Shown: one piece after another, positions 17,374 through 31,284 of the stretch
Position numbering within the stretch: the first letter of the stretch is position 1
How the letters are laid out: every line of letters begins with the position of its first letter
NCBI RefSeq assembly: GCF_901538355.1
Contig: NZ_LR593887.1
Location: 3,696,920 to 3,760,919, forward strand
From: Tuwongella immobilis
GTDB taxonomy: Bacteria; Planctomycetota; Planctomycetia; Gemmatales; Gemmataceae
DNA length: 64,000 nt
Direction: 5' to 3'
Translations under genes and position numbers: made by a program
Notes under the pieces: generated by a model
Database searches by the model: none
What the model saw: the letters and a program-made list of their open reading frames with translations, nothing else
What the model was told of the DNA's origin: nothing

Positions 17374-18312
17374 ATGGGCATTTACGATCGTGAGTATTAC
17401 CGTTCGGACTCGGGTGATCGAGCGAATTGGGATGGATCGCACCGCGGGGGGCGGGCGCTCATCATCATCACCGTTGTCTCGTTCTTGGCTCAGATCCTAA
17501 CGTTGGAGCGTCCCGAAGGGATGCAGTTGGTGATGCAGGGGTGGTTCACCGAGCTGTTTTGGATGAACCCGGAACGTGTCGTTGATTCGTTCCAAATTTG
17601 GCGGATGGTCAGCTACGCCTTCTTGCATGACATCACATCCATCATGCATATTGTCATGAATATGCTCATTTTATGGTGGTGTGGCTTTCGACTCGAAGAT
17701 CGCTTTGGTACCCGCGAATTCGTCGCATTGTATCTGGTTGCCGCGTTCGTCGGCGCGGTTGGACAGTTAGTTTCTGCAGCACTCGGATTTTCCGCGTGGG
17801 AAACTCCCGTTATTGGCGCTTCCGGAGCGACATACGCACTGTTGGTCATCTACGCCTATCTCAACCCCAGTCAGATCGTCTACGTATTTTTTGTCTTACC
17901 GATGCCGATCTGGGTATTGGTTACGCTCTTTTTGGCATTGGATATCAGCGGTGCGTTGGGAATGCGATCCGGGAACACGGCTTACTGGGTCCATATCGCC
18001 GGTGCAGTGTTCGGATTCGCGTACATTCACTATCGCCTGATGCTGACCAACTGGCTCCCGAACCGCAATCGCCGGCGGGTCGCTCGAGAAGCCCCGGCTC
18101 CCCGTCTGAAGATTTATCAGGATCCACAGCCTAATTTGCCCAGTGAGCCAAAGTCACCACCTGCGGCCCATCCGGAAGTCGAAGACAACCTGACCGAATT
18201 GATGGATCAAGTCTTGGAGAAAGTCGCACGGGAAGGTCAAGCATCGCTGACTCCTGAAGAACGCGACATTCTATTCCGAGCAAGCGAACGCCTCAAAAAG
18301 CGACGCAAATAA
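17374..18312 (+). CDS. Rhomboid-family intramembrane serine protease
   Basis: A 312-residue membrane protein with six predicted helices. The catalytic serine lies in GASGATYA (residues 148-155, Ser150) and the partner histidine in WVHIAGAVFG (His207). The HIVMNMLILWWCG helix corresponds to the conserved HxxxN segment of rhomboids. The soluble C-terminal tail (~225-312) ends in GQASLTPEERDILFRASERL, a short domain often appended to planctomycete and related rhomboids. It probably cleaves transmembrane substrates; none can be named. An FmdB-type gene follows after 30 bp. Confidence 0.93.
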   Translation: MGIYDREYYRSDSGDRANWDGSHRGGRALIIITVVSFLAQILTLERPEGMQLVMQGWFTELFWMNPERVVDSFQIWRMVSYAFLHDITSIMHIVMNMLILWWCGFRLEDRFGTREFVALYLVAAFVGAVGQLVSAALGFSAWETPVIGASGATYALLVIYAYLNPSQIVYVFFVLPMPIWVLVTLFLALDISGALGMRSGNTAYWVHIAGAVFGFAYIHYRLMLTNWLPNRNRRRVAREAPAPRLKIYQDPQPNLPSEPKSPPAAHPEVEDNLTELMDQVLEKVAREGQASLTPEERDILFRASERLKKRRK

Positions 18313-18579: not shown

Positions 18580-18838
18580 ACTCCTGCATGCAAACAGCTT
18601 AACTGCACGAAATGATGCAAACCTGATATCCGGCATTCTCCGCAAACGCGCTCTCTGAAGCGGGACCGGAGTCGGAATTAAATAAAATTCAGGGAAAAAT
18701 CTGATGATGCTATTGCAGAAGCGATGGCACCGGGATATCAATATGAATGTCACCTTCAAATGCCCGTCTGGCATCTGGAAGATGGGTAAAAATGGGTAGA
18801 CCAGTCGCGATTTGACAACATTATGTGAGGAGTTTACC

Positions 18839-19150
18839 GTGACCGATTCCAAGCAAGCCAAAGCCTGCGCCGACCTGCTCCAAGCCATTGCCGAACCCAA
18901 CCGCATCCGCATCATCGAGTGCCTGCGAACTGGGAACAAGAACGTCACGGAACTGGCCAAGATGCTGAGCGTTGAAATCGTCAACGTGTCGCACCACCTG
19001 GGTGTTCTTCGCCAAGCTCACCTGGTTCAAGACGAAAAGAACGGCCGCTTCGTGGTGTACTCGCTGAACCCCAAGCTGTTCACCAACGATGGCACCAAGG
19101 CCACCTACGTTGACCTCGGCTGGTGCCGCCTCGAAATCCCGTATGCGTGA
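18839..19150 (+). CDS. ArsR/SmtB-family winged-helix transcriptional regulator
   Basis: A 103-residue protein with the ArsR fold: LLQAIAEPNRIRIIECLRTG, then NVTELAKMLSVEIVNVSHHLGVLRQAHLV as recognition helix and wing, then GRFVVYSL. The arsenic-sensing ELCVCDL-type cysteine pair is absent from the helix, so it does not look like a classical arsenic sensor. GTG is the chosen start because GAGGAG lies 7 nt upstream; the ATG 9 codons earlier has no such site. The neighbouring genes do not reveal its target. Confidence 0.88.
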   Translation: MTDSKQAKACADLLQAIAEPNRIRIIECLRTGNKNVTELAKMLSVEIVNVSHHLGVLRQAHLVQDEKNGRFVVYSLNPKLFTNDGTKATYVDLGWCRLEIPYA

Positions 19151-19765
19151 TTGATTGGTCTGCTGGTCAGCGCATCCCCCATTTCGGATGGGAGGATTCC
19201 GTCCTTGGCTTGCGGATGCTCTGGTTCCACTGATATTCATCCATCCATTGCTAATCAATGGAACGGATCGCCTACGGACCATGACCAACTTTGGATTAAT
19301 GGTCCCCCCAGACAAACGATCCCCCATTCGACCAACGCAACATGGCGTTGGTCGATTCTGTTGGTGCCCTGCCTCGTTCACCACTCTCATCCAACTCGAC
19401 TTCGCCAATTCCCACTTGCCCGATTGCGCAGCCCGCCCCGCGCAACTCCCCGATTCGATGTGCCGGGGGTTGAGGTGTTCAGCTCGGGGTTGATCCAAGT
19501 GGATATCCACAAACACGTTCCCAATGGTCAGTTCTGTTGATTGGTGGCCGATCGACGACTCCGAATAAAGGAGCGTAGTCCGATCTCGCACCGGACAATT
19601 TTTCGCGATTATTTTCCGAAAAGATTTTCGCAGCCAATTTTGCCCCCCTGGATCGAACAATCTCCGTCCCATCGGAGTAAACTTACCGTTGAATTCCGGG
19701 CTTGTGCGAATGCTCCAAACTCAGCAAGCTATGCCGATTCCCTGGAATCGGATGGAGCGCGACGG
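19151..19765. other. 615-bp gene-free region after the ArsR gene
   Basis: Several frames are open here, but none shows codon use or motifs of a real protein. It contains at least three inverted repeats: ATCCCCCAT/ATGGGAGGAT near 19171-19195 (possible weak terminator for the ArsR gene), CCATTG/CAATGG near 19245, and the stronger hairpin at 19328-19355. The promoter of the next operon presumably lies in the last ~150 bp. Confidence 0.5.
19328..19355. repeat. 11-bp perfect inverted repeat (hairpin)
   Basis: TCGACCAACGC and its exact complement GCGTTGGTCGA flank a 6-nt spacer. There is no T-run on either side, so it is a poor terminator by itself. It could be an operator or part of an untranslated RNA. 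Confidence 0.6.
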
Positions 19766-21382
19766 ATGGCATGGACAGCTCACTCGCAAAGCACTCGCAA
19801 AACGATTCAACTCGCAACGGCTTGTCTGCTGGTGGCGATCGGCTGGTTTGCACTTCGCCCGTTTTTACTGGCTTCGGTTTGGATCTTGCCCGCTGAATGG
19901 GAAGAGATTCGCCTGAATTTCATCATCTTACCGCGGACAGCCGAAGACGAATTGCAGTTTCATGCCGCCAGCGACCCGGCATTTGTTCCGACTCGACCGC
20001 CGGCAATCACGATTCATGATGGTTGGGAACTCCAATCGGCCCATCTCGGCGATCGGCAAACCCACTGGATACTAAAACGCACATCCGAATCCAGCTCGGC
20101 GAGCACCATTGGTTGGGAATGGCGAGTCGCTCGGCCGCGCGAGGATCGGCAATCGGCGAATCCGGTTCCGCATCGCCCCGCCCCGACTGCCGATGATCTG
20201 GCCGAGGAACCCGGCATTCCGGTCAACGACATTGCCGTGGCGGCGGAAGCGCGGAAACTCGTCGAATATAGCGACCATCCCGACGAACGCCTCGAATCGC
20301 TATTTCAATCGGTCGATCGACTCCCAATCGGCACTCCGCTCGAGCAATGTCGCCATTTGGTGGCCCTCTGCCGCAATCGATTGTTCCCAGCGAGATTGGT
20401 GTGGGGCGTCGATTGGCAGCCCGAAACCGGCACCGCCGCACTGCAAGTTTGGGTCGAAGCCTGGTCCGAAAATCGATGGCATTTTCTTTGTCCGACCACG
20501 CACCGATTCGATCGCTTCCCCCGTAATCGCATCGCGCTCACCTGGGGCGGTCACGCGATGCTTGAACAATCCAACGGTGTGGCGATCGCCTTCGACCGCT
20601 ACCGGATTCATGCCGCTTCCGGTGCCGAAATCGCCACCGCATCGAGTGATCCATTTTGGCTGCGGGCGATGCGTGGGATGATGTGGTTTCTCAGCCCAAT
20701 GCGGCTCTCCGAATCCGGTCGGCAGTTGGCGGAATGGCTGCTGCTGATGCCGGTGGCGGGCTTGTTGATTGTGATTTCGCGCAACCTGATCGGAATGACG
20801 ACATTCGGAACATTCACTCCGGCCCTCTTGGGAATCGCCTTCCGCGATGCGCCGGTTGGGCTGCTGTTGGCGTTGTTGGTCGTGATTCTGCTCGTCGGTT
20901 GGATTCTTCGCAAAGGCTTGCAGCATTTGCATTTATTGCAAATCCCCCGCGCGACGCTCGTGCTCACGGGAGTCGTCGGCACGCTGCTGATTGGCTTGCT
21001 GCTGGCTCACGATACCAGGATCGACTTGCAGCGCACCGGGGCCTTGTTTCCGTTGATAATTCTTACCGGGATGATCGAACGATTCTGGACGCTGGAAGAA
21101 GAGGACGGTAGCAAGGCGGCTCTGCAAACGCTGGGGCAAACGCTGCTGGTGGCCGGGATGATTGCCATCGTCATTCGGCTGATACCGATTTCGCACGCCC
21201 TGTTGATCGCTCCCGAAGGGGTGTTGATCCTCGCCGCCGCGACGCTGATTCTGGGACGCTACACCGGATATCGACTGACGGAACTGCTGCGATTTCGGGA
21301 GTTGCGCGAATCGCCGGTGTCGGAGTTGGGACCAATCGCGGAACATCGGATCACGTTGCAATCTCGACTGGGGCAATCATGA
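19766..21382 (+). CDS. Inactive transglutaminase fused to seven-transmembrane domain
   Basis: A 538-residue protein. After one N-terminal helix (TIQLATACLLVAIGWFALRP) comes an extracytoplasmic region (~50-305) that includes a transglutaminase-like segment (LEQCRHLVALCRNRLFPARLV; PETGTAALQVWVEAW). A bundle of about seven helices follows (~330-500: WLLLMPVAGLLIVISRNLIG, then TFGTFTPALLGIAF and others). This is the architecture known as an inactive transglutaminase fused to 7TM helices. Such genes are almost always followed by a RimK-related ATP-grasp gene, as here with a 4-bp ATGA overlap. Function is unknown; a peptide-tagging or amide-ligation role has been proposed for the family. The start is the ATG after GGAG. 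Confidence 0.85.
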   Translation: MAWTAHSQSTRKTIQLATACLLVAIGWFALRPFLLASVWILPAEWEEIRLNFIILPRTAEDELQFHAASDPAFVPTRPPAITIHDGWELQSAHLGDRQTHWILKRTSESSSASTIGWEWRVARPREDRQSANPVPHRPAPTADDLAEEPGIPVNDIAVAAEARKLVEYSDHPDERLESLFQSVDRLPIGTPLEQCRHLVALCRNRLFPARLVWGVDWQPETGTAALQVWVEAWSENRWHFLCPTTHRFDRFPRNRIALTWGGHAMLEQSNGVAIAFDRYRIHAASGAEIATASSDPFWLRAMRGMMWFLSPMRLSESGRQLAEWLLLMPVAGLLIVISRNLIGMTTFGTFTPALLGIAFRDAPVGLLLALLVVILLVGWILRKGLQHLHLLQIPRATLVLTGVVGTLLIGLLLAHDTRIDLQRTGALFPLIILTGMIERFWTLEEEDGSKAALQTLGQTLLVAGMIAIVIRLIPISHALLIAPEGVLILAAATLILGRYTGYRLTELLRFRELRESPVSELGPIAEHRITLQSRLGQS

Positions 21383-22362
21383 TTGCACGTTTGCGAGAAT
21401 GGGCACGACTCCTCCGCGAGCGCGGTGTCCTGGGTTTGAACGCGCGAAATGCCTGCGGCGTTCTCGATCATAATCCGCGATCGCTCTTTCCGATTGTGGA
21501 TGAGAAATCGCGGTTCCAGGCGTTGTGCGATCGAGTCGGAGTCCCGACGCCGCACACACTCGGCCTGGTGCGCATGAACGGTGAAATCGATCAGACGATG
21601 GTGCGGCTGGCCCATCTGCAATCATTTGTCTTGAAGCCCAATCGTGGGTGTTCGGGTCGCGGCATTCTGGTGGTCGTCGCACGCGATCCGTTCGGAGGAT
21701 GGATTCGCAGCAATGGGGTGGCGTTGGAGCCGCCCGCGCTGCGACAGCATCTGTCGGACACACTCGCGGGGCTGTATTCGCTGGGTGGGCGGCCCGATGC
21801 GGTGCTGATCCAGCAGCGCATTCAATGTCACCCGGCATTTGCGGAGATCAGCTATCAAGGGATTCCCGACGTTCGGGTGCTGCTCTATCGCGGTGAACCG
21901 GCGATGACGATGCTGCGATTACCGACCAAACAGTCGAACGGCCGAGCGAATCTGCATCAAGGCGGACTGGGAGTGGGGGTCGACCTGCAAACCGGGATGA
22001 CACTCCACGCGATTCAGGGGCACCGGAGTTTGGCGCGGCACCCGGATTTGGGCACCGCCCTGCTGGGCTATCGCGTTCCGCACTGGCGAACGCTTCTGGA
22101 AATGTCCAAGCGCATCGCTCGTGCCGTGGGGTTGGGATATTTGGGGGTCGATCTGGTGTTGGATGCCGATCGTGGCCCGCTGGTGTTGGAAGCGAACGCA
22201 CGACCGGGATTGGCCATTCAGTTGGCGAATCACGCGGGATTGATTCCGCGATTGCAAGCGATCGATTCGCAGTTGGGGGCACACGACACGCCGGATGGCC
22301 CGCCGTCGGTGATGACTCGATTTTGGGAAGATGCGGTTCCGCGAGAAAAAATTCTCGGCTAA
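21379..22362 (+). CDS. Alpha-L-glutamate ligase-like (RimK-related ATP-grasp) protein
   Basis: A 327-residue ATP-grasp enzyme. Visible features are the N-terminal LGLNARNACGVLDHNPRSLF block, VLKPNRGCSGRGILVV (ATP-binding loop, ~76-91), PDVRVLLYRGEPAMTMLRLPT, GGLGVGVDLQTG, and the metal-binding YLGVDLVLDADRGPLVLEANARPGL near the C terminus. These match the rimK_rel_E_lig family, ligases expected to form an amide with an amino-acid substrate. It is translationally coupled to the preceding membrane protein. The retropepsin-like protease that sometimes accompanies this pair is not encoded in the window. Confidence 0.9.
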   Translation: MIARLREWARLLRERGVLGLNARNACGVLDHNPRSLFPIVDEKSRFQALCDRVGVPTPHTLGLVRMNGEIDQTMVRLAHLQSFVLKPNRGCSGRGILVVVARDPFGGWIRSNGVALEPPALRQHLSDTLAGLYSLGGRPDAVLIQQRIQCHPAFAEISYQGIPDVRVLLYRGEPAMTMLRLPTKQSNGRANLHQGGLGVGVDLQTGMTLHAIQGHRSLARHPDLGTALLGYRVPHWRTLLEMSKRIARAVGLGYLGVDLVLDADRGPLVLEANARPGLAIQLANHAGLIPRLQAIDSQLGAHDTPDGPPSVMTRFWEDAVPREKILG

Positions 22363-23888: not shown

Positions 23889-25244
23889 TCAAATCAATTC
23901 GGGCAACGCCTTCCAATCATCCACCAAGAAGTGCGGGCGACCCGTGTAATCGGGCAGCATCACCGTATGCGGATCGATTCCGAAGTGGTGATACAGCGTG
24001 GCATGCACTTCGCCAAAGTGAACCGGCCGCTTGGCAATTGCAGCGCCGTCTCGGTCGGTGGCTCCAATCACTTGGCCAGTGCGGAATCCACCCCCGGCGA
24101 TCAACCCACCGCCAACTTGCGGCCAGTGATCGCGGCCAGCGTCTTTGTTGATTCGCGGAGTGCGGCCGAATTCGCCCCAGGCCACCACCGCGACATCGTC
24201 GAGCATCCCACGATCGTCCAAATCCGTGATCAACGCATGCATTCCCTGATCGAACCAGGGGAAGTGCGTATTCTTGCATTCGCTGAAATTACTGCTGTGG
24301 AAATCCCACCGACCAAAATTCAGCGTCACGACGCGTGCCCCGGCTTCGACCAGCCGACGCGCCATCAGAAAATGCTCCAGATTGCGCGGTGCCCCGTCGC
24401 CATAGTTACGCGGATCGCCCTTGCCATAGCGTTCGCGGACCTTCAGCGGCTCCCGCGACAGATCCAACGCCTCGGCCAACTTGCTCGACGTCAGAATCTC
24501 CAACGCTTGTCGATTAATCGAATCCATGCCATCGAGCACGCCCCGCTGATCGAGATCGCGCCGCATCGAATCGAAGCTGGACAGCAACGCTTGCCGATCG
24601 CTCAGCGTTTCCGCGCCGATTCGGGTCCGGTCCATGTCGTCTTTGACGGGTCCCGATGGCCGAAATGCGGCATGGGCCACGCCGAGAAACCCCGGATGCC
24701 CCGGCGAACCATACGGAGGATGGCCCGCTTTCGGTGCCAGTCCGAAGAATGGCGGCATGGACCGATCGACCGGCCCAAGCACCCGCGAAATCGTCGATCC
24801 GAACGACGGCCAATCGCCGGGAATCGGTTTGGTCTTCGGTCGCCCGGTATAGCAGATGTACGAATCATGGTCGCCATTGGGCGAACCGTAAACCGAACGC
24901 AGGGGGACCAACCGATCCATGATCGACGCGAGTTTCGGCAGATGTTCGCAGATTTGAATACCGGGCACATTCGTGGCCATCGGTTTGAATTCGCCGCGAA
25001 TCTCGGCCGGAGCTTCCATCTTGAGATCGTACATATCTTGGTGCGGGGGTGCCCCGACCAGATAAATCATGATGACCGCTTTGTGCGATCGCGTGACACC
25101 AGACAATTCTTCCGCGCGGAGCAGATTCGGCAGCGTCAAGCCACCGACGCCCAACGCTCCAATTTTGAGAAACTCTCGGCGATCGGTCGCGAGATTGCGA
25201 TGAAAGCCGGCGCAACCAGTCGAATTGGCGGAGGTTTGCGACAT
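23889..25244 (-). CDS. DUF1501 protein (sulfatase/alkaline-phosphatase-like), Tat-type signal
   Basis: A 451-residue protein. The twin-arginine segment DRREFLKIGALGVGGLTLP (~21-39) precedes the DUF1501 core: VIMIYLVGAPPHQDMYDLK, SYICYTGRP, MARRLVEAGARVVTLNFG, WGEFGRTPRINKDAGRDHWP and VHATLYHHFGID. DUF1501 proteins belong to the alkaline-phosphatase superfamily and are greatly expanded in planctomycetes. Substrates are unproven, though sulfated polysaccharide degradation is often assumed. The GEFGRTP block and the following DHWP probably contribute metal ligands. The chosen ATG has CGGAG upstream. Usually these pair with DUF1549/1553 proteins; this copy has none adjacent. Confidence 0.92.
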   Translation of the reverse strand: MSQTSANSTGCAGFHRNLATDRREFLKIGALGVGGLTLPNLLRAEELSGVTRSHKAVIMIYLVGAPPHQDMYDLKMEAPAEIRGEFKPMATNVPGIQICEHLPKLASIMDRLVPLRSVYGSPNGDHDSYICYTGRPKTKPIPGDWPSFGSTISRVLGPVDRSMPPFFGLAPKAGHPPYGSPGHPGFLGVAHAAFRPSGPVKDDMDRTRIGAETLSDRQALLSSFDSMRRDLDQRGVLDGMDSINRQALEILTSSKLAEALDLSREPLKVRERYGKGDPRNYGDGAPRNLEHFLMARRLVEAGARVVTLNFGRWDFHSSNFSECKNTHFPWFDQGMHALITDLDDRGMLDDVAVVAWGEFGRTPRINKDAGRDHWPQVGGGLIAGGGFRTGQVIGATDRDGAAIAKRPVHFGEVHATLYHHFGIDPHTVMLPDYTGRPHFLVDDWKALPELI

Positions 25245-25651
25245 GCGGGGAACTCCGTGCAACAGGCGGGCAAGAAACGCGGGATGATCCGAATCAGCGG
25301 GCAGGTTCAAGCAGCAAATTCAATCCCAACTATAAACCTGCTCGGAACCCCTGTCCAGCAGAATCATCGAACTTCGCATCGACTCTTCCGAATCGGAATC
25401 CGAATGCGACGCCGGATGAATCGAATTCACCGCCAAAACATTCCGGCAGATTGAATGCTTCTGGCTTTCCAGATGCCCGTTCCACGAGTATACTGCACCA
25501 AGAATCGGGACGTTCTCACCATGCAATCACTCTCTCTCCGCCTGGGTATCACCCCGAACCAGCGCTACCGCTTCGAGTTCGGCGAGCCTGTTCGCCATCG
25601 GATTTTCGGATTCGCACACCCTCTGCCATCGGGATTTCTGGGAGGATGGTC
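25245..25651. other. Divergent intergenic region between two DUF1501 genes
   Basis: 407 bp with no credible gene. It separates two paralogous DUF1501 genes transcribed away from each other and carries the candidate promoter listed at 25466-25494. Nothing else distinctive was found. Confidence 0.5.
25466..25494 (+). promoter_or_regulatory. Candidate sigma70-like promoter for the plus-strand DUF1501 gene
   Basis: TTTCCA and TATACT (5/6 match to the -10 consensus) are separated by 17 nt and lie about 157 bp before the start codon. The -35 match is weak (4/6), so this is a tentative assignment. Confidence 0.35.
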
Positions 25652-27046
25652 ATGTCTGCGAGCAATCGTCGGGAGTTTCTCCGTGCGGGCTTGACGGGGT
25701 TTGGGTCGCTATCGCTACCGGGACTCCTGCGGTCGCGGGCGATGGCAGCTACCCCGGCATCGGAGCGGACGGCGATTATTCTCGTGTGGCTGCGAGGTGG
25801 GTGCAGTCACCTCGATACCTATGACCCCAAGCCCGACTCTCCCGCCGAATATCGCAGTCCGTATGCCCCGATTTCGACCTCGGTTCCGGGGATGCGGTTG
25901 ACCGAGTTGCTGCCGATGCAAGCCAAACGGGCGCATCGCTTTGCGCTGCTTCGCTCGCTGACGCATACCGGCGGTGGGCATCCCGCTGGCTCACTGCAAG
26001 TGCTGTCGGGCGATCCCGATCCCATCGATAAACTCAAACCCGTTCGCCCCGATTTCATGACGGTTGCCCATTATCTGCGAGGCGGTAACGCCAGCGGGCT
26101 TCCGAATTATGTCGGGGTCAATCCGGTCGTTCGCTATGACAGTTTCACGATTGCTGGACCGGGCTATTTGAGCGCGAATTACTCGCCGTTCGTCATCGGT
26201 GGCGACCCCAACTCCCCGCAATTCCGCGTGCAGAATGTCGGCATCACCGACCCCCAAGTCATTGCCCGGATTCGAGATCGGAGCGGCCTGCGTGAGCAGT
26301 TGGATACGTTCCGCCGGGAATTGGATCGCTCGGGAATTGCCTCGACTATGGATCAATTCGAATCCCAAGCAATCGACTTAATGACCAGCCCCGCCGCTGC
26401 TCGCGCCTTCGATTTGACATTGGAAGATTCCAAAATCCGCGATCGATACGGCCGCAATCAGTGGGGCCAACAATTGCTGATGGCCCGCCGATTGGTGGAA
26501 GCTGGCGTTGAAATTGTCACCACCACGTTGGATGGTCCGCTCTGCGGTCGCGTTCAGAATTGGGACGATCATGCAGTCAACCACCATATTTTCGATGCCT
26601 TGAAATACCGCGCTCCGTTTTTCGATCAGGGCGTATCCGCTTTGATTGACGATATTTACGATCGCGGCCTTGATCGCAAAGTCATGGTCGTGGTGACGGG
26701 CGAATTCGGACGAACACCGCGGATTTCGCGCGTCGCCAGTTCCGGTGCGGGGGTTGCGAGTGCGGCAGCGGGGACCGAACAGCCCGGACGCGATCACTGG
26801 CCGCAAGCCGGTTCGATGATTTGGTTCGGCGGTGGAATCAAAACCGGTCAGGTGATCGGGGCTACGGATGCCCGTGGAGAGCAGGTTGTCGAACGGCGGA
26901 TGTCGCCACACGATTTCCTGGCCACCATTTACGCCCATCTGGGAATCGATTACAAACGGGTGACGGTGCCCGACCTCACGGGGCGCCCGAACTTGATTGT
27001 CGATCATGGCGAGGCATTCCCCGAATTGACCCGTTCCGCGACGTGA
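25652..27046 (+). CDS. DUF1501 protein, Tat-type signal
   Basis: A 464-residue paralogue of the divergent neighbour. The signal is NRREFLRAGLTGFGSLSLPG (~4-23). The core shows ILVWLRGGCSHLDTYDPKP, HTGGGHPAGSLQVLSGD, LMARRLVEAGVEIVTTTLDG, VVVTGEFGRTPRISR, RDHWPQAGSMIWFGGGI and ATIYAHLGIDY. An Ala/Gly/Ser-rich insert (SSGAGVASAAAGTEQ) sits between GEFGRTPRI and RDHWP, where the neighbour has only a few residues. Two ATGs lie close together; the second has GGAGG 6 nt upstream, while the first abuts the GGAGG. Confidence 0.92.
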   Translation: MSASNRREFLRAGLTGFGSLSLPGLLRSRAMAATPASERTAIILVWLRGGCSHLDTYDPKPDSPAEYRSPYAPISTSVPGMRLTELLPMQAKRAHRFALLRSLTHTGGGHPAGSLQVLSGDPDPIDKLKPVRPDFMTVAHYLRGGNASGLPNYVGVNPVVRYDSFTIAGPGYLSANYSPFVIGGDPNSPQFRVQNVGITDPQVIARIRDRSGLREQLDTFRRELDRSGIASTMDQFESQAIDLMTSPAAARAFDLTLEDSKIRDRYGRNQWGQQLLMARRLVEAGVEIVTTTLDGPLCGRVQNWDDHAVNHHIFDALKYRAPFFDQGVSALIDDIYDRGLDRKVMVVVTGEFGRTPRISRVASSGAGVASAAAGTEQPGRDHWPQAGSMIWFGGGIKTGQVIGATDARGEQVVERRMSPHDFLATIYAHLGIDYKRVTVPDLTGRPNLIVDHGEAFPELTRSAT

Positions 27047-27059
27047 CATCGATCACAAA

Positions 27060-27097
27060 CCGCCAAGGAATCTCGGGATTCCGAAACTCCTTGGCGG
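27060..27097. terminator. Bidirectional hairpin between convergent DUF1501 genes
   Basis: A 10-bp perfect outer stem (CCGCCAAGGA/TCCTTGGCGG) plus an inner 4-bp stem (TCGG/CCGA). No T-run on either side. Located midway between two convergent stop codons. Confidence 0.75.
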
Positions 27098-27122
27098 ATG
27101 CGAATATCGACCCGACTTCGAC

Positions 27123-28520
27123 TTACGCGATCACATCCGTGACCACTTCACCGGCCACGTCCGTCAACCGAAAGTCTCGCCCGGCATACCGATATGTCAA
27201 CTTCTCGTGATCCATCCCGAGTAGATGCAGAATCGTCGCATGGAAATCATGCACATGCACCGGATCCACATCCGGATTGATTCCATACTCGTCTGAGGTT
27301 CCGTAGGTCACACCGCCCTTCACTCCGCCCCCCGCCATCCAAGACGAAAAGACCTGATGATGGTGTTCGCGTCCCATTGCCGAGGCGTTGAGGTTATACG
27401 GTGTCCGACCGAATTCGGTGGTCCAGACGATCAGCGTCGAGTCGAGCAACCCGCGCTGTTTCAGATCCGTAATCAACCCGGCAATCGGCTGATCGATCGC
27501 TTTGGCGAGGCGTTCATGATCGGCCATATTCCCATGCGAATCCCAATTCGCACTCGAACCAACGTCGATCAGTTCGATGAATCGCACTCCGCGTTCCGCG
27601 AGGCGACGGGCGACCAAACATTGCCAGCCGAAACCGGCCGTGGTTTTGCGATCGATGCCGTACAATCCCAACGTCGCATCGGTTTCGCCGGTGAGCGCAA
27701 AGGCTTCCGGCGCTTCCTGTTGCATTCCGTAGGCCGTCTCGAACGCGCGGATCTGGGCATCGAGTGCGGCTTCGGCAGCGCGCGATTCTCGGTGTGCGCT
27801 GTTGACCGACCGCAAGAGATCGAGTTCCATCGCTTGCAAGTCGGGATAAGGCACCCGCGGCTTGAGATTCGGCAGCGGATTCGGCCCGGGAACAATGTGC
27901 GTCCCCTGATGGCAGCCGGGCAGGAAATCACTCCCCCACGCCTGGGCACCCGTGTATGGAGCATGCGGCGCAAGCACCACGAACGAGGGCAAATTTCGAT
28001 TCACGGTCCCCAGCCCGTAACTCACCCACGATCCGATGCTGGGCCGAGCGAAATTGAACGACCCGGTGTGCATTCCCATGGTCGCCTTATCGTGCCCGGT
28101 ATGGTCACCATAAAGCGAGTTGAACACGCACACATCATCAATCACGCCAGCGAGTTTGGGAAACAACCCACTCACCCAGGTGCCCGACTTGCCGTGTCGT
28201 GCAAACGCCCAATTCGGTTTCTTGAGCGTGCGTTCAAATGTCCCCTTTTTCCCTTGCCAATTGTCAATCGTGATGGTTTTCCCATGATCGGCAATCAGTT
28301 TCGGCTTGTGATCGAACGTATCCACATGGCTGACCCCACCCGTCGAGAAGATGAAGATCACCCGTTGGGCCTTCGCGGGGAAATGCGATTTCTTCGGGGC
28401 AAGCGGATCGGCCGGATTGGCTTGCGCTTGTTCGGCCAGCATTCCGGCCAGCGCCAGGGCACCAAATCCACCGGCAGCCCGTTGAAGGAATTCGCGGCGT
28501 GAACGTGGAAACGACTGCAT
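27123..28520 (-). CDS. DUF1501 protein, Tat-type signal, downstream of DUF1549/1553 gene
   Basis: A 465-residue protein. The signal is SRREFLQRAAGGFGALALAG (~7-26). The core has VIFIFSTGGVSHVDTFDHKP, LYGDHTGHDKATMGMHTG, CLVARRLAERGVRFIELID, NWDSHGNMADHERL, VWTTEFGRTPYNLN and REHHHQVFSSWMAGGG. This is the subtype that travels with DUF1549/DUF1553 proteins: it starts 16 bp after that gene ends, with GGAGGAA upstream of the ATG. The pair is likely one operon whose products act together outside the cytoplasmic membrane. Reaction unknown. Confidence 0.93.
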   Translation of the reverse strand: MQSFPRSRREFLQRAAGGFGALALAGMLAEQAQANPADPLAPKKSHFPAKAQRVIFIFSTGGVSHVDTFDHKPKLIADHGKTITIDNWQGKKGTFERTLKKPNWAFARHGKSGTWVSGLFPKLAGVIDDVCVFNSLYGDHTGHDKATMGMHTGSFNFARPSIGSWVSYGLGTVNRNLPSFVVLAPHAPYTGAQAWGSDFLPGCHQGTHIVPGPNPLPNLKPRVPYPDLQAMELDLLRSVNSAHRESRAAEAALDAQIRAFETAYGMQQEAPEAFALTGETDATLGLYGIDRKTTAGFGWQCLVARRLAERGVRFIELIDVGSSANWDSHGNMADHERLAKAIDQPIAGLITDLKQRGLLDSTLIVWTTEFGRTPYNLNASAMGREHHHQVFSSWMAGGGVKGGVTYGTSDEYGINPDVDPVHVHDFHATILHLLGMDHEKLTYRYAGRDFRLTDVAGEVVTDVIA

Positions 28521-28536
28521 GGGAATTCCTCCAAAA

Positions 28537-31284
28537 TCAATCCACATAAAGGGATGCGTTCGAAGTCATCAACACCCGCCCCAGTGCGGCCCAGGCTGCG
28601 GACTCCGCTTGCGTGGCCGGCAACTTCGATTCCTGCCAGCGTTTGCGATAATTCGCCAAGAATGATTGGAATTTCTGCAACTGCGGTGCATCCAATGCTT
28701 GTCCGGTGACCGATTCGACCGCGAATCGTAGTCGCGCCGATTCGTCGCCCGGTTGTGCGAGCATGCGTTTGGCGAAGGCATCCGATTGGGCATGCACGAA
28801 CGGATCATTCATCAGGTACAGCGCTTGCGTTGGCGTGATCGTAAACGGTCGCACATCGGTCGAGATATTCGGATCGGCACCATCGAACAGGGCCAGATAC
28901 GGATGCCGCGATTGTCGTTGCACCATCAAATAGACGCTGCGATGCTTCGATTCATACACCGCATGGAACGGATTGTGAATCGTGAATCGCCACTGACTCA
29001 TCGGCGGAAATGGATGCGTCGTGGGCATGGATCGGTCCAATGTGCCAGCCACCGCCAGCATCCCATCTCGGATCGATTCGGCATCCAATCGCCGTCGAGA
29101 AAATCGACTCAACCAGCGATTGTCGAGGTCCGCTTCGATCTGCTTTTCGGTCGCGGTCGAGGCGAGTTGATACGCTCGTGAGTGCAGCATGATTCGATGC
29201 ATCTGCTTGATCGACCAGCCGTTGCGCTGAAATTCGCGGGCCAGCCAATCGAGCAGTTCTGGGTGCGTTGGCTTGTCGCCGCGAACGCCGAAATCGCTGG
29301 GTGTGGCCACGATTCCACGGCCGAAATGATGCTGCCAGATGCGATTGACCATCACCCGCGGCGTGAGCGGATTCGATTCGCGGGTCAGCCATTCGGCCAG
29401 ATGCTGCCGACCGGATTCCGCCGCACTCGCGGGCAAGACATCTCCACCGAGGACCGATAGAAACGATCGCGGTACCTCATCGCCCAGTTTGTCCGGTTCG
29501 CCGCGTCGCTGAATGCGAGCGTTCATCGCCTTGGCTTCCATCACACCATAGGCATGATCGCACAACTCCTTGCCTGCCAGGGAGTTCCGTTGCAATCGCA
29601 GGGCTTGCAGTTCGGCATCGCCCTTTTGAATTGTGGTTTGCAGCGCGGCTTTCTTGGCGGGGTCGAGTTCTTTCACGACCGCGACTTGATCGGCGGGAAG
29701 AAATGGCACCGTTGAGAATGCCAGATTATCGACATCATGCGGCGTGATTTTTCCCGGCACATGGCCTAAACCATCGTTGATGAACGTATCGATCACGCCA
29801 TCCCATTTCGGATCAAACGTCTTGTCTGCGAAGGAGATCGTCTTGCCGGATTGCGTGAATCGACCTGCAAATTTTCGCTTCTCTAAATCGAGATCGAGTT
29901 GCAGATTCGCCCATTCATTCGATTGAATCGACGCCACTTTCTGCCATTCTTCCCCGGATCGAATCCACAATGCATCGGCAGTGATGCTCACTTGCAGCGC
30001 AAAGGTGGTAATCACTCCATGACTGAGGAAAAAGCGATGCGCGCCGGGTGTGTCGCTGCTGGGTAGCGGGCGAAAATCGACATTCACGTGCAACTTTGCG
30101 CCGGGGTCGGCATGAAACGCCGTCGGAAAGGTCGCCCGAATGCCATCATTTGGCACACTGGGCAGCACGCGCACGCCGCGCGTCCCCGCCGGAAACACAT
30201 TGCGAAACGGCGATTGCGCCTCGGCCAACACAGTAATCGGCCCGCCGTAGAACCACGGTTCGGGTGGCGCTTTGCCGATTGTGGCCGATTCCAAATTCCA
30301 CAGGCCATCGGGACCGTTGAGTTCCGAACGAGCCATCCGGACATCCGTCGCCAATTTGCGAATCTGCGAGTCGAGTTGCGACAATTCCGCCTGACGGGCC
30401 GCTTCCTTCTGCTTCAGTTCCTCGGGGGGCAAAAGCGGGACCAGATTCGCGGGTCGCTGATGCTCTTCGCCACCGGGAAAGGCAAACTGACTGCTCGCCA
30501 GAATTCCGTAGAGACCGTAGTACTCGCGGGTCGAAATCGGATCGTATTTGTGATCGTGACAGCGGGCACAACCGATCGACAACCCCAGCACCGATCGGCC
30601 GATTGTTTCCAGATTATCGGCGATGTCCAAATGTTGGAATTCAGTGTTGACGTTGTACCCAAAGCGTTTGCCAATCGCGAGATAGCCGGTTGCGGTGATC
30701 GCATCCGCATAGGCATCGGGAGTCATTTTCTGATCGCGAATCGCGGCCTTAGCCAGGAGATCACCCGCGAATTGTTCTTTCAAAAATTGATCAAACGGCT
30801 TATCTGCCGCAAACGATCGAATGACATAATTTCGATAGCGATAGGCATTCGGAACCGGATAATCGGCTCCATCCCCGGCCGTATCGGCATAACGGGCCAC
30901 ATCCAACCAGTGGCGGCCCCAGCGCTCCGCATAATGCGGCGAGGCGAGCAATCGTTCGACAACACGCTCCCAGGCTTGTGGGGACGAATCGGCCAAGAAC
31001 GCGGCGATTTCTTCCGGAGTGGGCGGTAATCCGGTCAGGTCGAGCGTCACTCGACGCAGCAGCGTCCGACGATCTGCCAGTGCGACGGGTTGAAGTCCCT
31101 TGGCGTGCATCGCCGATCGTAAGTAGCGATCAATTGGGGACTTCCATTCCGGATCGATGATCGCGGGGGGTTCCGTGGACCGCAGTGGCTGAAAGGCCCA
31201 ATGGGGATCTGCGGCAAGAAGCACCGATGCACTGAGCCAGGTCAGCAGACCGAGTGCCCATCGCGGTTGAAACGCCGATCGCAT
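28537..31284 (-). CDS. Secreted DUF1549/DUF1553 protein with LamG-like insert
   Basis: A 915-residue protein with a signal peptide (~1-25, SASVLLAADP). The DUF1549 domain (~45-260) includes LDLTGLPPTPEEIAAFLADS, LLASPHYAERWGRHWLDVAR and the cytochrome-c-like CARCHDHKYDP motif (Cys near 241). A beta-rich ~150-residue region (~380-530) resembles a LamG/concanavalin domain. DUF1553 fills the C-terminal third (TPRVMVNRIWQHHFGRGIV; HPELLDWLAREF; SRRRLDAESIRDGMLA). These large proteins are typical of planctomycetes; function unproven. GGGGGAGG precedes the ATG. It heads the operon with the DUF1501 gene. Confidence 0.92.
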   Translation of the reverse strand: MRSAFQPRWALGLLTWLSASVLLAADPHWAFQPLRSTEPPAIIDPEWKSPIDRYLRSAMHAKGLQPVALADRRTLLRRVTLDLTGLPPTPEEIAAFLADSSPQAWERVVERLLASPHYAERWGRHWLDVARYADTAGDGADYPVPNAYRYRNYVIRSFAADKPFDQFLKEQFAGDLLAKAAIRDQKMTPDAYADAITATGYLAIGKRFGYNVNTEFQHLDIADNLETIGRSVLGLSIGCARCHDHKYDPISTREYYGLYGILASSQFAFPGGEEHQRPANLVPLLPPEELKQKEAARQAELSQLDSQIRKLATDVRMARSELNGPDGLWNLESATIGKAPPEPWFYGGPITVLAEAQSPFRNVFPAGTRGVRVLPSVPNDGIRATFPTAFHADPGAKLHVNVDFRPLPSSDTPGAHRFFLSHGVITTFALQVSITADALWIRSGEEWQKVASIQSNEWANLQLDLDLEKRKFAGRFTQSGKTISFADKTFDPKWDGVIDTFINDGLGHVPGKITPHDVDNLAFSTVPFLPADQVAVVKELDPAKKAALQTTIQKGDAELQALRLQRNSLAGKELCDHAYGVMEAKAMNARIQRRGEPDKLGDEVPRSFLSVLGGDVLPASAAESGRQHLAEWLTRESNPLTPRVMVNRIWQHHFGRGIVATPSDFGVRGDKPTHPELLDWLAREFQRNGWSIKQMHRIMLHSRAYQLASTATEKQIEADLDNRWLSRFSRRRLDAESIRDGMLAVAGTLDRSMPTTHPFPPMSQWRFTIHNPFHAVYESKHRSVYLMVQRQSRHPYLALFDGADPNISTDVRPFTITPTQALYLMNDPFVHAQSDAFAKRMLAQPGDESARLRFAVESVTGQALDAPQLQKFQSFLANYRKRWQESKLPATQAESAAWAALGRVLMTSNASLYVD

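What the first reader, a model, noticed from the sequence alone, without database searches (positions are those of the whole stretch)
19766..22362. Coupled inactive-transglutaminase/7TM and ATP-grasp ligase pair without its protease partner
This two-gene module occurs in scattered bacteria and is thought to form an amide-tagging or peptide-synthesis system, often with a retropepsin-like zinc/aspartyl protease. Here the genes overlap by ATGA but no protease is nearby. The target of the ligase is unknown in any organism as far as I know. It sits after 615 bp of gene-free DNA containing hairpins.
Basis: partly seen in the sequence, partly recalled or inferred. Interest (0 to 1): 0.5.

Follow-up and report, generated by a model that had tools for sequence, protein, structure and literature searches.

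The report
Ligase–membrane pair missing its usual protease
This planctomycete carries an intact two-gene envelope system (a membrane protein with a dead transglutaminase domain plus an amino-acid ligase) related to the stress-tolerance genes rloB and rloC of Pseudomonas, and most of its relatives that carry the pair keep a quite different secreted protease, of the gingipain-like C25 family, beside it, which this genome appears to have lost.

Summary
19766-21382 encodes a RloB-type protein (N-terminal anchor, periplasmic transglutaminase fold with all three catalytic positions lost, 7TM domain). 21379-22362, overlapping by ATGA, encodes a RloC-type ATP-grasp ligase with its invariant residues intact. 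No protease partner sits beside them. First, the pair is no longer wholly uncharacterised: rloABC was studied genetically in Pseudomonas aeruginosa in 2025, where the secreted protease RloA cuts poly-glutamate and loss of rloB or rloC rescues loss of RloA. Second, surveying all 102 held genomes of the window's order, the pair normally travels with a different protease: a secreted C25-family (gingipain-like) protein of about 700 aa. It occurs in 23 of 102 genomes, always together with rloB (33 of 102), always next to rloB or rloC, and never in the 69 rloB-less genomes. The window's genome lacks it, and its only PF05618 protease is a signal-less RimB type beside rimK, far away. I infer a glutamate-adding, membrane-presented product that is normally trimmed by a secreted protease. 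The aspartic protease appears replaced by a cysteine-type one in this lineage, then lost here. Chemistry and substrate are inferred, not shown.

The parts
19766..21382 (+). RloB-type membrane protein, 538 aa: N-terminal anchor helix, periplasmic inactive transglutaminase fold, 7TM domain
   Evidence: ORF; PF14402 145 bits and Transglut_core 25 bits; NCBIfam RloB 132.7 bits, below its Pseudomonas-strict cut-off of 900
20174..20575 (+). transglutaminase-fold domain (residues 137-270); catalytic Cys/His/Asp positions read Pro191/Gln227/Cys242
   Evidence: alignment A2; AlphaFold2 model; VIA-align Z 12.2 to 3isr_B and about 9-10 to transglutaminases over 137-270
20693..21304 (+). 7TM domain (residues 310-513)
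   Evidence: PF14402 match
21379..22362 (+). RloC-type ATP-grasp ligase, 327 aa, start overlapping the rloB stop as ATGA
   Evidence: TIGR02291 319 bits, over cut-off; PF14397 237 bits; invariant K86, D164, R166, N191, D258, E271, N273; fold matches LysX/ArgX and RimK
19328..19355 (+). perfect 11-bp hairpin with 6-nt loop in the gene-free upstream stretch; terminator-like, not above chance

Best explanation
The two genes encode a RloBC-type envelope module. Shown: an intact ATP-grasp ligase coupled to a membrane protein with a catalytically dead periplasmic transglutaminase-fold domain and a 7TM domain. Inferred: RloC adds amino acids, most likely L-glutamate, to a carboxylate (C-terminal Glu of a protein or carrier); RloB presents or moves the product across the inner membrane, with the dead transglutaminase fold acting as a binding or docking module; and a secreted protease trims or turns over the product. 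In proteobacteria that protease is the aspartic enzyme RloA. In the window's order it is, I propose, a C25-family protein encoded next to rloB or rloC. The window's lineage kept a full RloB and RloC but lost the protease gene, so the product is either left untrimmed or handled by an unlinked enzyme.
For: Family matches. RloC model's best PDB matches are ArgX (3vpb_A, E 9.6e-12), RimK-RpsF (5zk6, E 1.1e-11) and LysX, ligases that join amino acids to a C-terminal Glu (their chemistry partly recalled). In P. aeruginosa RloA cuts stretches of 8 or more Glu in vitro and deletion of rloB or rloC rescues the rloA triple mutant (PMC12239564, passages and sections read). C25 protein: 22 of 101 genomes, 23 of all 102, all inside the rloB+ set (33 of 102), adjacent to rloB or rloC in 22 of 22 examined loci and in the 23rd by coordinates. 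Fisher p 7e-15 by genome, 8e-6 by genus (on the first 101). 17 of 17 aligned C25 proteins match PF01364 at E <= 0.01, with invariant GH and QSC motifs and N-terminal hydrophobic stretches. In three genomes (G331, G340, G363) rloC lies on another contig, yet the C25 gene stays beside rloB. RloB lost its transglutaminase domain in 6 of 9 readable C25-less loci and in 0 of 22 C25+ loci (p 1e-4).
Against: No substrate or activity is shown for RloC or for the C25 protein. PF01364 scores are modest (21-31 bits, one of eight below the cut-off of 23), and the profile found no solved gingipain. Outside the order a neighbouring protease is not a rule: of 80 loci, 51 have PF05618, 1 has C25, 25 have neither (12 of these with complete flanks), and 3 have no rloB in the flank. 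L183 has a TG-less RloB frame right after a PF05618 gene, and 20 loci have a TG-bearing RloB with neither protease linked, so the TG-protease link is not strict. The TG/C25 counts are not corrected for ancestry. Loss rather than primitive absence in the window is not proven: the RloC tree leaves the window in an unresolved polytomy.
Confidence: 0.45

Rival explanations
1. RloC amidates a surface polysaccharide, lipid or peptidoglycan precursor rather than making Glu tails, and RloB is the flippase or acceptor-binding partner for that envelope polymer.
For: The strongest Pfam match of RloC is PF14397, 'Sugar-transfer associated ATP-grasp' (237 bits). rlo mutants of P. aeruginosa have cell-shape and wall-antibiotic phenotypes (PMC12239564). 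The N-terminal part of the C25 proteins weakly resembles the Cwp6 cell-wall-binding protein (5j72, E 1e-3).
Against: RloA cuts poly-Glu peptides in vitro. No glycosyltransferase or polysaccharide gene family recurred beside the pair in the conserved-neighbour clusters that I identified. The RloC model is nearest to protein C-terminal Glu ligases.
Confidence: 0.25
2. The unlinked RimB, encoded beside RimK in the same genome, serves as the protease partner, so the module is complete but split between loci.
For: In the order PF05618 occurs in 13 of 101 genomes, all rloB+ (0 of 69 without; p 4e-8 by genome, 3e-4 by genus). RimK scoring 280 bits or more occurs in 12 genomes, all of them in that set. 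In G071 rimBK lies divergently beside rloBC, and in G065 rimK lies beside it.
Against: The window's RimB and the order's homologues lack a signal peptide (12 of 13 readable), so they should not meet a periplasmic product. In P. aeruginosa rimB does not interact genetically with rloA. Only 13 of 32 rloB+ genomes have it.
Confidence: 0.15
3. The pair is a decaying remnant without function in this lineage.
For: The protease gene present in most relatives with full-length RloB is missing, and RloB is divergent (27-34% identity to the order's full-length homologues in A2).
Against: Both frames are intact and overlapping, and every invariant RloC residue is kept.
Confidence: 0.08

Closest known systems
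rloABC of Pseudomonas aeruginosa (PMC12239564)
   Same: inactive-transglutaminase 7TM protein plus cytoplasmic ATP-grasp protein encoded as an adjacent pair
   Different: no RloA in the window; the window's N-terminal domain matches PF01841 but not PF14400; relatives in the order carry a C25-family protein instead
RimK/RimB
   Same: ATP-grasp amino-acid ligase fold similar to RimK, with a related aspartic protease in the Rim and Rlo systems
   Different: RloC is a separate family (TIGR02291); RimBK is cytoplasmic, has no 7TM partner, and is present separately in this genome
LysX/ArgX amino-group carrier ligases
   Same: best structural match of the RloC model (3vpb, 3vpd)
   Different: no LysW-like carrier was looked for, and sequence identity is only 16-18%
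Peptidase family C25 (gingipain type)
   Same: 17 of 17 partner proteins of relatives match PF01364 and keep a GH...QSC motif pair
   Different: low scores, different N-terminal half, no NCBIfam match for two tested, no activity known; absent from the window's genome

Membership tests
RloABC system | 7TM_transglut domain (PF14402) | tested here: met
   145 bits, cut-off 25
RloABC system | transglutaminase-fold domain without catalytic triad | tested here: met
   P191/Q227/C242 at the triad positions; fold Z about 9-12
RloABC system | adjacent ATP-grasp protein of TIGR02291 | tested here: met
   319 bits, cut-off 314; ATGA overlap
RloABC system | secreted RloA-type aspartic protease in the operon | tested here: not met
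   none in the window; the genome's only PF05618 is signal-less, beside rimK, and scores best to RimB. So it is a RloBC pair, not a RloABC operon
NCBIfam RloB NF052267 | score over the curated cut-off of 900 | tested here: not met
   132.7 bits
RloBC plus C25 (variant described here) | C25-family gene next to rloB or rloC | tested here: not met
   met in 23 order genomes, not in the window's genome
RloBC pair | poly-Glu or amide ligase activity | not testable with these tools
   needs biochemistry
RimK family | NF007764 or TIGR00768 over cut-off | tested here: not met
   26.8 and 45.4 bits against 331 and 143.4
active transglutaminases | Cys-His-Asp triad | tested here: not met
   all three positions replaced in the window

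The most novel reading that the evidence does not exclude
In this planctomycete order an unrelated secreted C25-type cysteine protease has replaced the aspartic protease RloA as the obligate partner of RloBC, and the dead transglutaminase domain of RloB is the docking module for protease or product, repeatedly lost once the protease is lost. The window's genome is the exception that kept the domain without the protease. The system's product would thus be defined by a need for periplasmic proteolysis, whatever the fold of the protease.
Probability: 0.3. Interest if true: 0.65.

Novelty: new variant of a known kind. Interest (0 to 1): 0.5.

Why it matters
RloBC is needed for normal wall-antibiotic tolerance and cell shape in P. 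aeruginosa, but its product is unknown. A lineage in which a protease of a different class accompanies the same pair, with nearly strict co-occurrence and adjacency in the order, gives independent evidence that proteolysis of the product is part of the system. It also provides natural experiments (protease lost, transglutaminase domain lost, rloC unlinked) to test how RloB couples ligase and protease.

Tried and rejected
Considered and rejected: (a) a C25 remnant in the gene-free upstream DNA: no hit in six frames with stops masked. (b) The upstream hairpins as a regulatory RNA: no Rfam match above threshold, terminator count below shuffles. (c) The rhomboid gene at 17374-18312 as the missing protease: it is separated by an ArsR-type gene, and no cluster holding that frame is among the conserved-neighbour clusters printed. 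(d) A conserved gene beside the window's own pair: the printed clusters that include the window are those of the pair (large clusters that merge overlapping frames on both strands) and frames further downstream (DUF1501-type genes and one more). (e) A gingipain structure as match for the C25 profile: not found; only weak N-terminal matches. (f) The 7TM part as an Rnf-type fold: 9eri_A Z 8.4 over 135 residues and 8ahx_A Foldseek E 0.65; too weak for a helical protein. (g) Printed reports of the C25 link: searches in the held open library; from the listings (title and start of abstract only) I saw none. Iyer et al. 2009 is not held, so priority cannot be settled.

Limits: the C25 search scored only the best 11 (order) or 3 (phylum) candidates per genome. 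PF01364 rang in no control genome. The 80 genome-contig loci are the best 80 of 571 relatives and were found by two peptide patterns. G325 has a contig-cut rloB and was dropped from the TG count; G394 was not fetched. For G387 only one of its two rloB matches (contig C203) was fetched. In one search the motif of L087 was misread, leaving 12 of 13 RimB-type proteins readable. Output was cut in display.

Full report
What is there. The coordinates are right. Window 19766-21382 (+) is a 538-aa protein with an N-terminal anchor helix and a 7TM domain (PF14402, 145 bits), and it carries a marginal Transglut_core match (25 bits, cut-off 23). Window 21379-22362 (+) is a 327-aa ATP-grasp protein scoring 319 bits to TIGR02291 (cut-off 314.2) and 237 bits to PF14397. 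The start of the second gene overlaps the stop of the first as ATGA.

Is the transglutaminase dead and the ligase alive? In a 23-sequence alignment the three catalytic positions of the window protein read Pro191, Gln227 and Cys242 in place of Cys, His and Asp. Other members vary: two of the 23 keep a Cys at the nucleophile position, and many keep the His. The AlphaFold2 model (mean pLDDT 73) has a transglutaminase fold at residues 137-270: VIA-align Z 12.2 to 3isr_B over 196 residues at 4.0 A, and Z about 9-10 to many transglutaminases. The list includes erythrocyte protein 4.2, a dead relative that I recall as a membrane scaffold. The ligase keeps every invariant residue of a 16-sequence alignment, including K86, D164, R166, N191, D258, E271 and N273. 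Its model (mean pLDDT 88) is closest to ArgX, RimK and LysX.

What is known. The same pair is rloB and rloC of Pseudomonas aeruginosa (PMC12239564; I read the abstract, passages, section 8 and the discussion). There RloA, a secreted aspartic protease of the RimB type, cuts stretches of eight or more glutamates in vitro. Cells lacking three RloA enzymes cannot grow in low salt, and deletion of rloB or rloC rescues them. The authors do not know the substrate. That paper reports 96% of RloB hits in Proteobacteria. In Shewanella, disruption of the RloB homologue gave vesicle overproduction (PMC12096838, passages read).

Survey of the order. PF14402 occurs in 33 of 102 genomes of the window's order (32 of 101 in the first draw) and TIGR02291 in 31 of 101. 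In the phylum draw PF14402 occurs in 14 of 294. Reading the loci showed a third gene: a protein of about 700 aa with an N-terminal hydrophobic stretch, directly upstream of rloB (13 loci) or directly downstream of rloC (9 loci), always on the same strand. All 17 aligned copies match Peptidase_C25, seven of eight tested over the cut-off, with invariant GH and QSC motifs 27 residues apart in the first sequence. I read these as the His-Cys pair of this protease family from recall; activity is not shown. Searched as a profile, the family is found in 22 of 101 genomes and in 23 of all 102, every one of them rloB-positive; none of the 69 rloB-negative genomes has it. By genus, in the first draw, it occurs in 12 of the 20 rloB+ genera against 0 of 23 without (p 8e-6). 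In the phylum draw full-length matches occur only in G071 and G191, both rloB+, each with one copy beside rloBC and a second elsewhere; five genomes have partial N-terminal matches only. One deltaproteobacterial MAG also has it after rloC (L140). Other planctomycete families instead have PF05618 directly upstream of rloB, with signal-like N-termini, as in Pseudomonas (L077, L079-L082).

The window is an exception. Its genome has no match to the C25 profile or to PF01364 (with a silent control), and no remnant lies near the pair. It has one PF05618 protease, at C1:535926-536321, beside rimK and without signal peptide, scoring best to RimB.

Links inside the system. In three genomes (G331, G340, G363) rloC is on another contig while the C25 gene stays beside rloB. 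Six of the nine readable C25-less loci (G319, G327, G347, G361, G384, G390) have a RloB whose transglutaminase domain is gone, against none of 22 C25+ loci (p 1e-4, not corrected for ancestry). This suggests that the dead transglutaminase domain serves the protease step. Against it: L183 has a TG-less RloB frame right after a PF05618 gene, and 20 loci among the 80 have a TG-bearing RloB with neither protease linked. The window, G362 and G387 keep the domain without a C25 match; G387 is 69% complete. Separately, PF05618 (13 of 101) and RimK of 280 bits or more (12 of 101) occur only in rloB+ genomes of the order, and rimBK or rimK sits beside rloBC in G071 and G065, so the Rim and Rlo systems also seem connected.

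Outside the order. Of the best 80 genome-contig loci (a few of them from the order itself), 51 have a PF05618 frame in the flank, 1 has C25, 25 have neither (12 with complete flanks) and 3 show no rloB in the flank. A pair without a linked protease is therefore not rare in bacteria. What stands out is the strict C25 link in this order and its absence here.

Mechanism and its status. Shown: gene identity, dead transglutaminase, intact ligase residues, co-occurrence and adjacency. Inferred from homology and from P. aeruginosa genetics: RloC adds amino acids, probably glutamate; RloB presents or exports the product; a secreted protease trims it. Inferred from comparative data only: the C25 protein stands in for RloA, and the transglutaminase fold docks it or its substrate. 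Whether the window's lineage lost the C25 gene is likely but unproven, since the RloC tree leaves the window in a polytomy of its order's clade.

Verdict. The pair itself is an ordinary member of two known protein families. The missing partner, and the lineage-specific protease partner uncovered around it, make a new variant of the Rlo kind that is worth an experiment. I found no report of the C25 link in the held library (searches, listings only), but the 2009 paper most likely to mention neighbours is not held.

Noticed in passing
window 17374-18312 (+): Rhomboid intramembrane protease gene (PF01694, 96 bits) 1.45 kb upstream of the pair, with an ArsR-type regulator (18812-19150) between.
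   Followed up: partly
G000:C1 about 535000-536320 (L002): RimB-RimK pair directly after a 468-aa frame with a C-terminal membrane helix; in the order RimBK occurs only in rloB-positive genomes.
   Followed up: partly
L117, L186, L191 downstream of rloC: Three gammaproteobacterial loci without a linked PF05618 or C25 protease have a secreted DUF885-like gene (name recalled) convergent with rloC.
   Followed up: no
window 20693-21304 (7TM part of RloB): Weak structural resemblance of the 7TM part to membrane subunits of the Rnf complex (9eri_A Z 8.4; 8ahx_A E 0.65).
   Followed up: no
L183:5695-7001: TG-less RloB frame (257 aa) directly after a PF05618 protease gene, a counterexample to the TG-protease link or a frameshift in a MAG.
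   Followed up: no
G071:C166:82040-84025 and G191:C292:5524-7779: Second, unlinked copies of the C25-family protein in two rloB-positive planctomycetes.
   Followed up: no
window 23892-28547: Three neighbouring DUF1501 genes downstream of the pair, after a 3-keto-disaccharide hydrolase gene.
   Followed up: no
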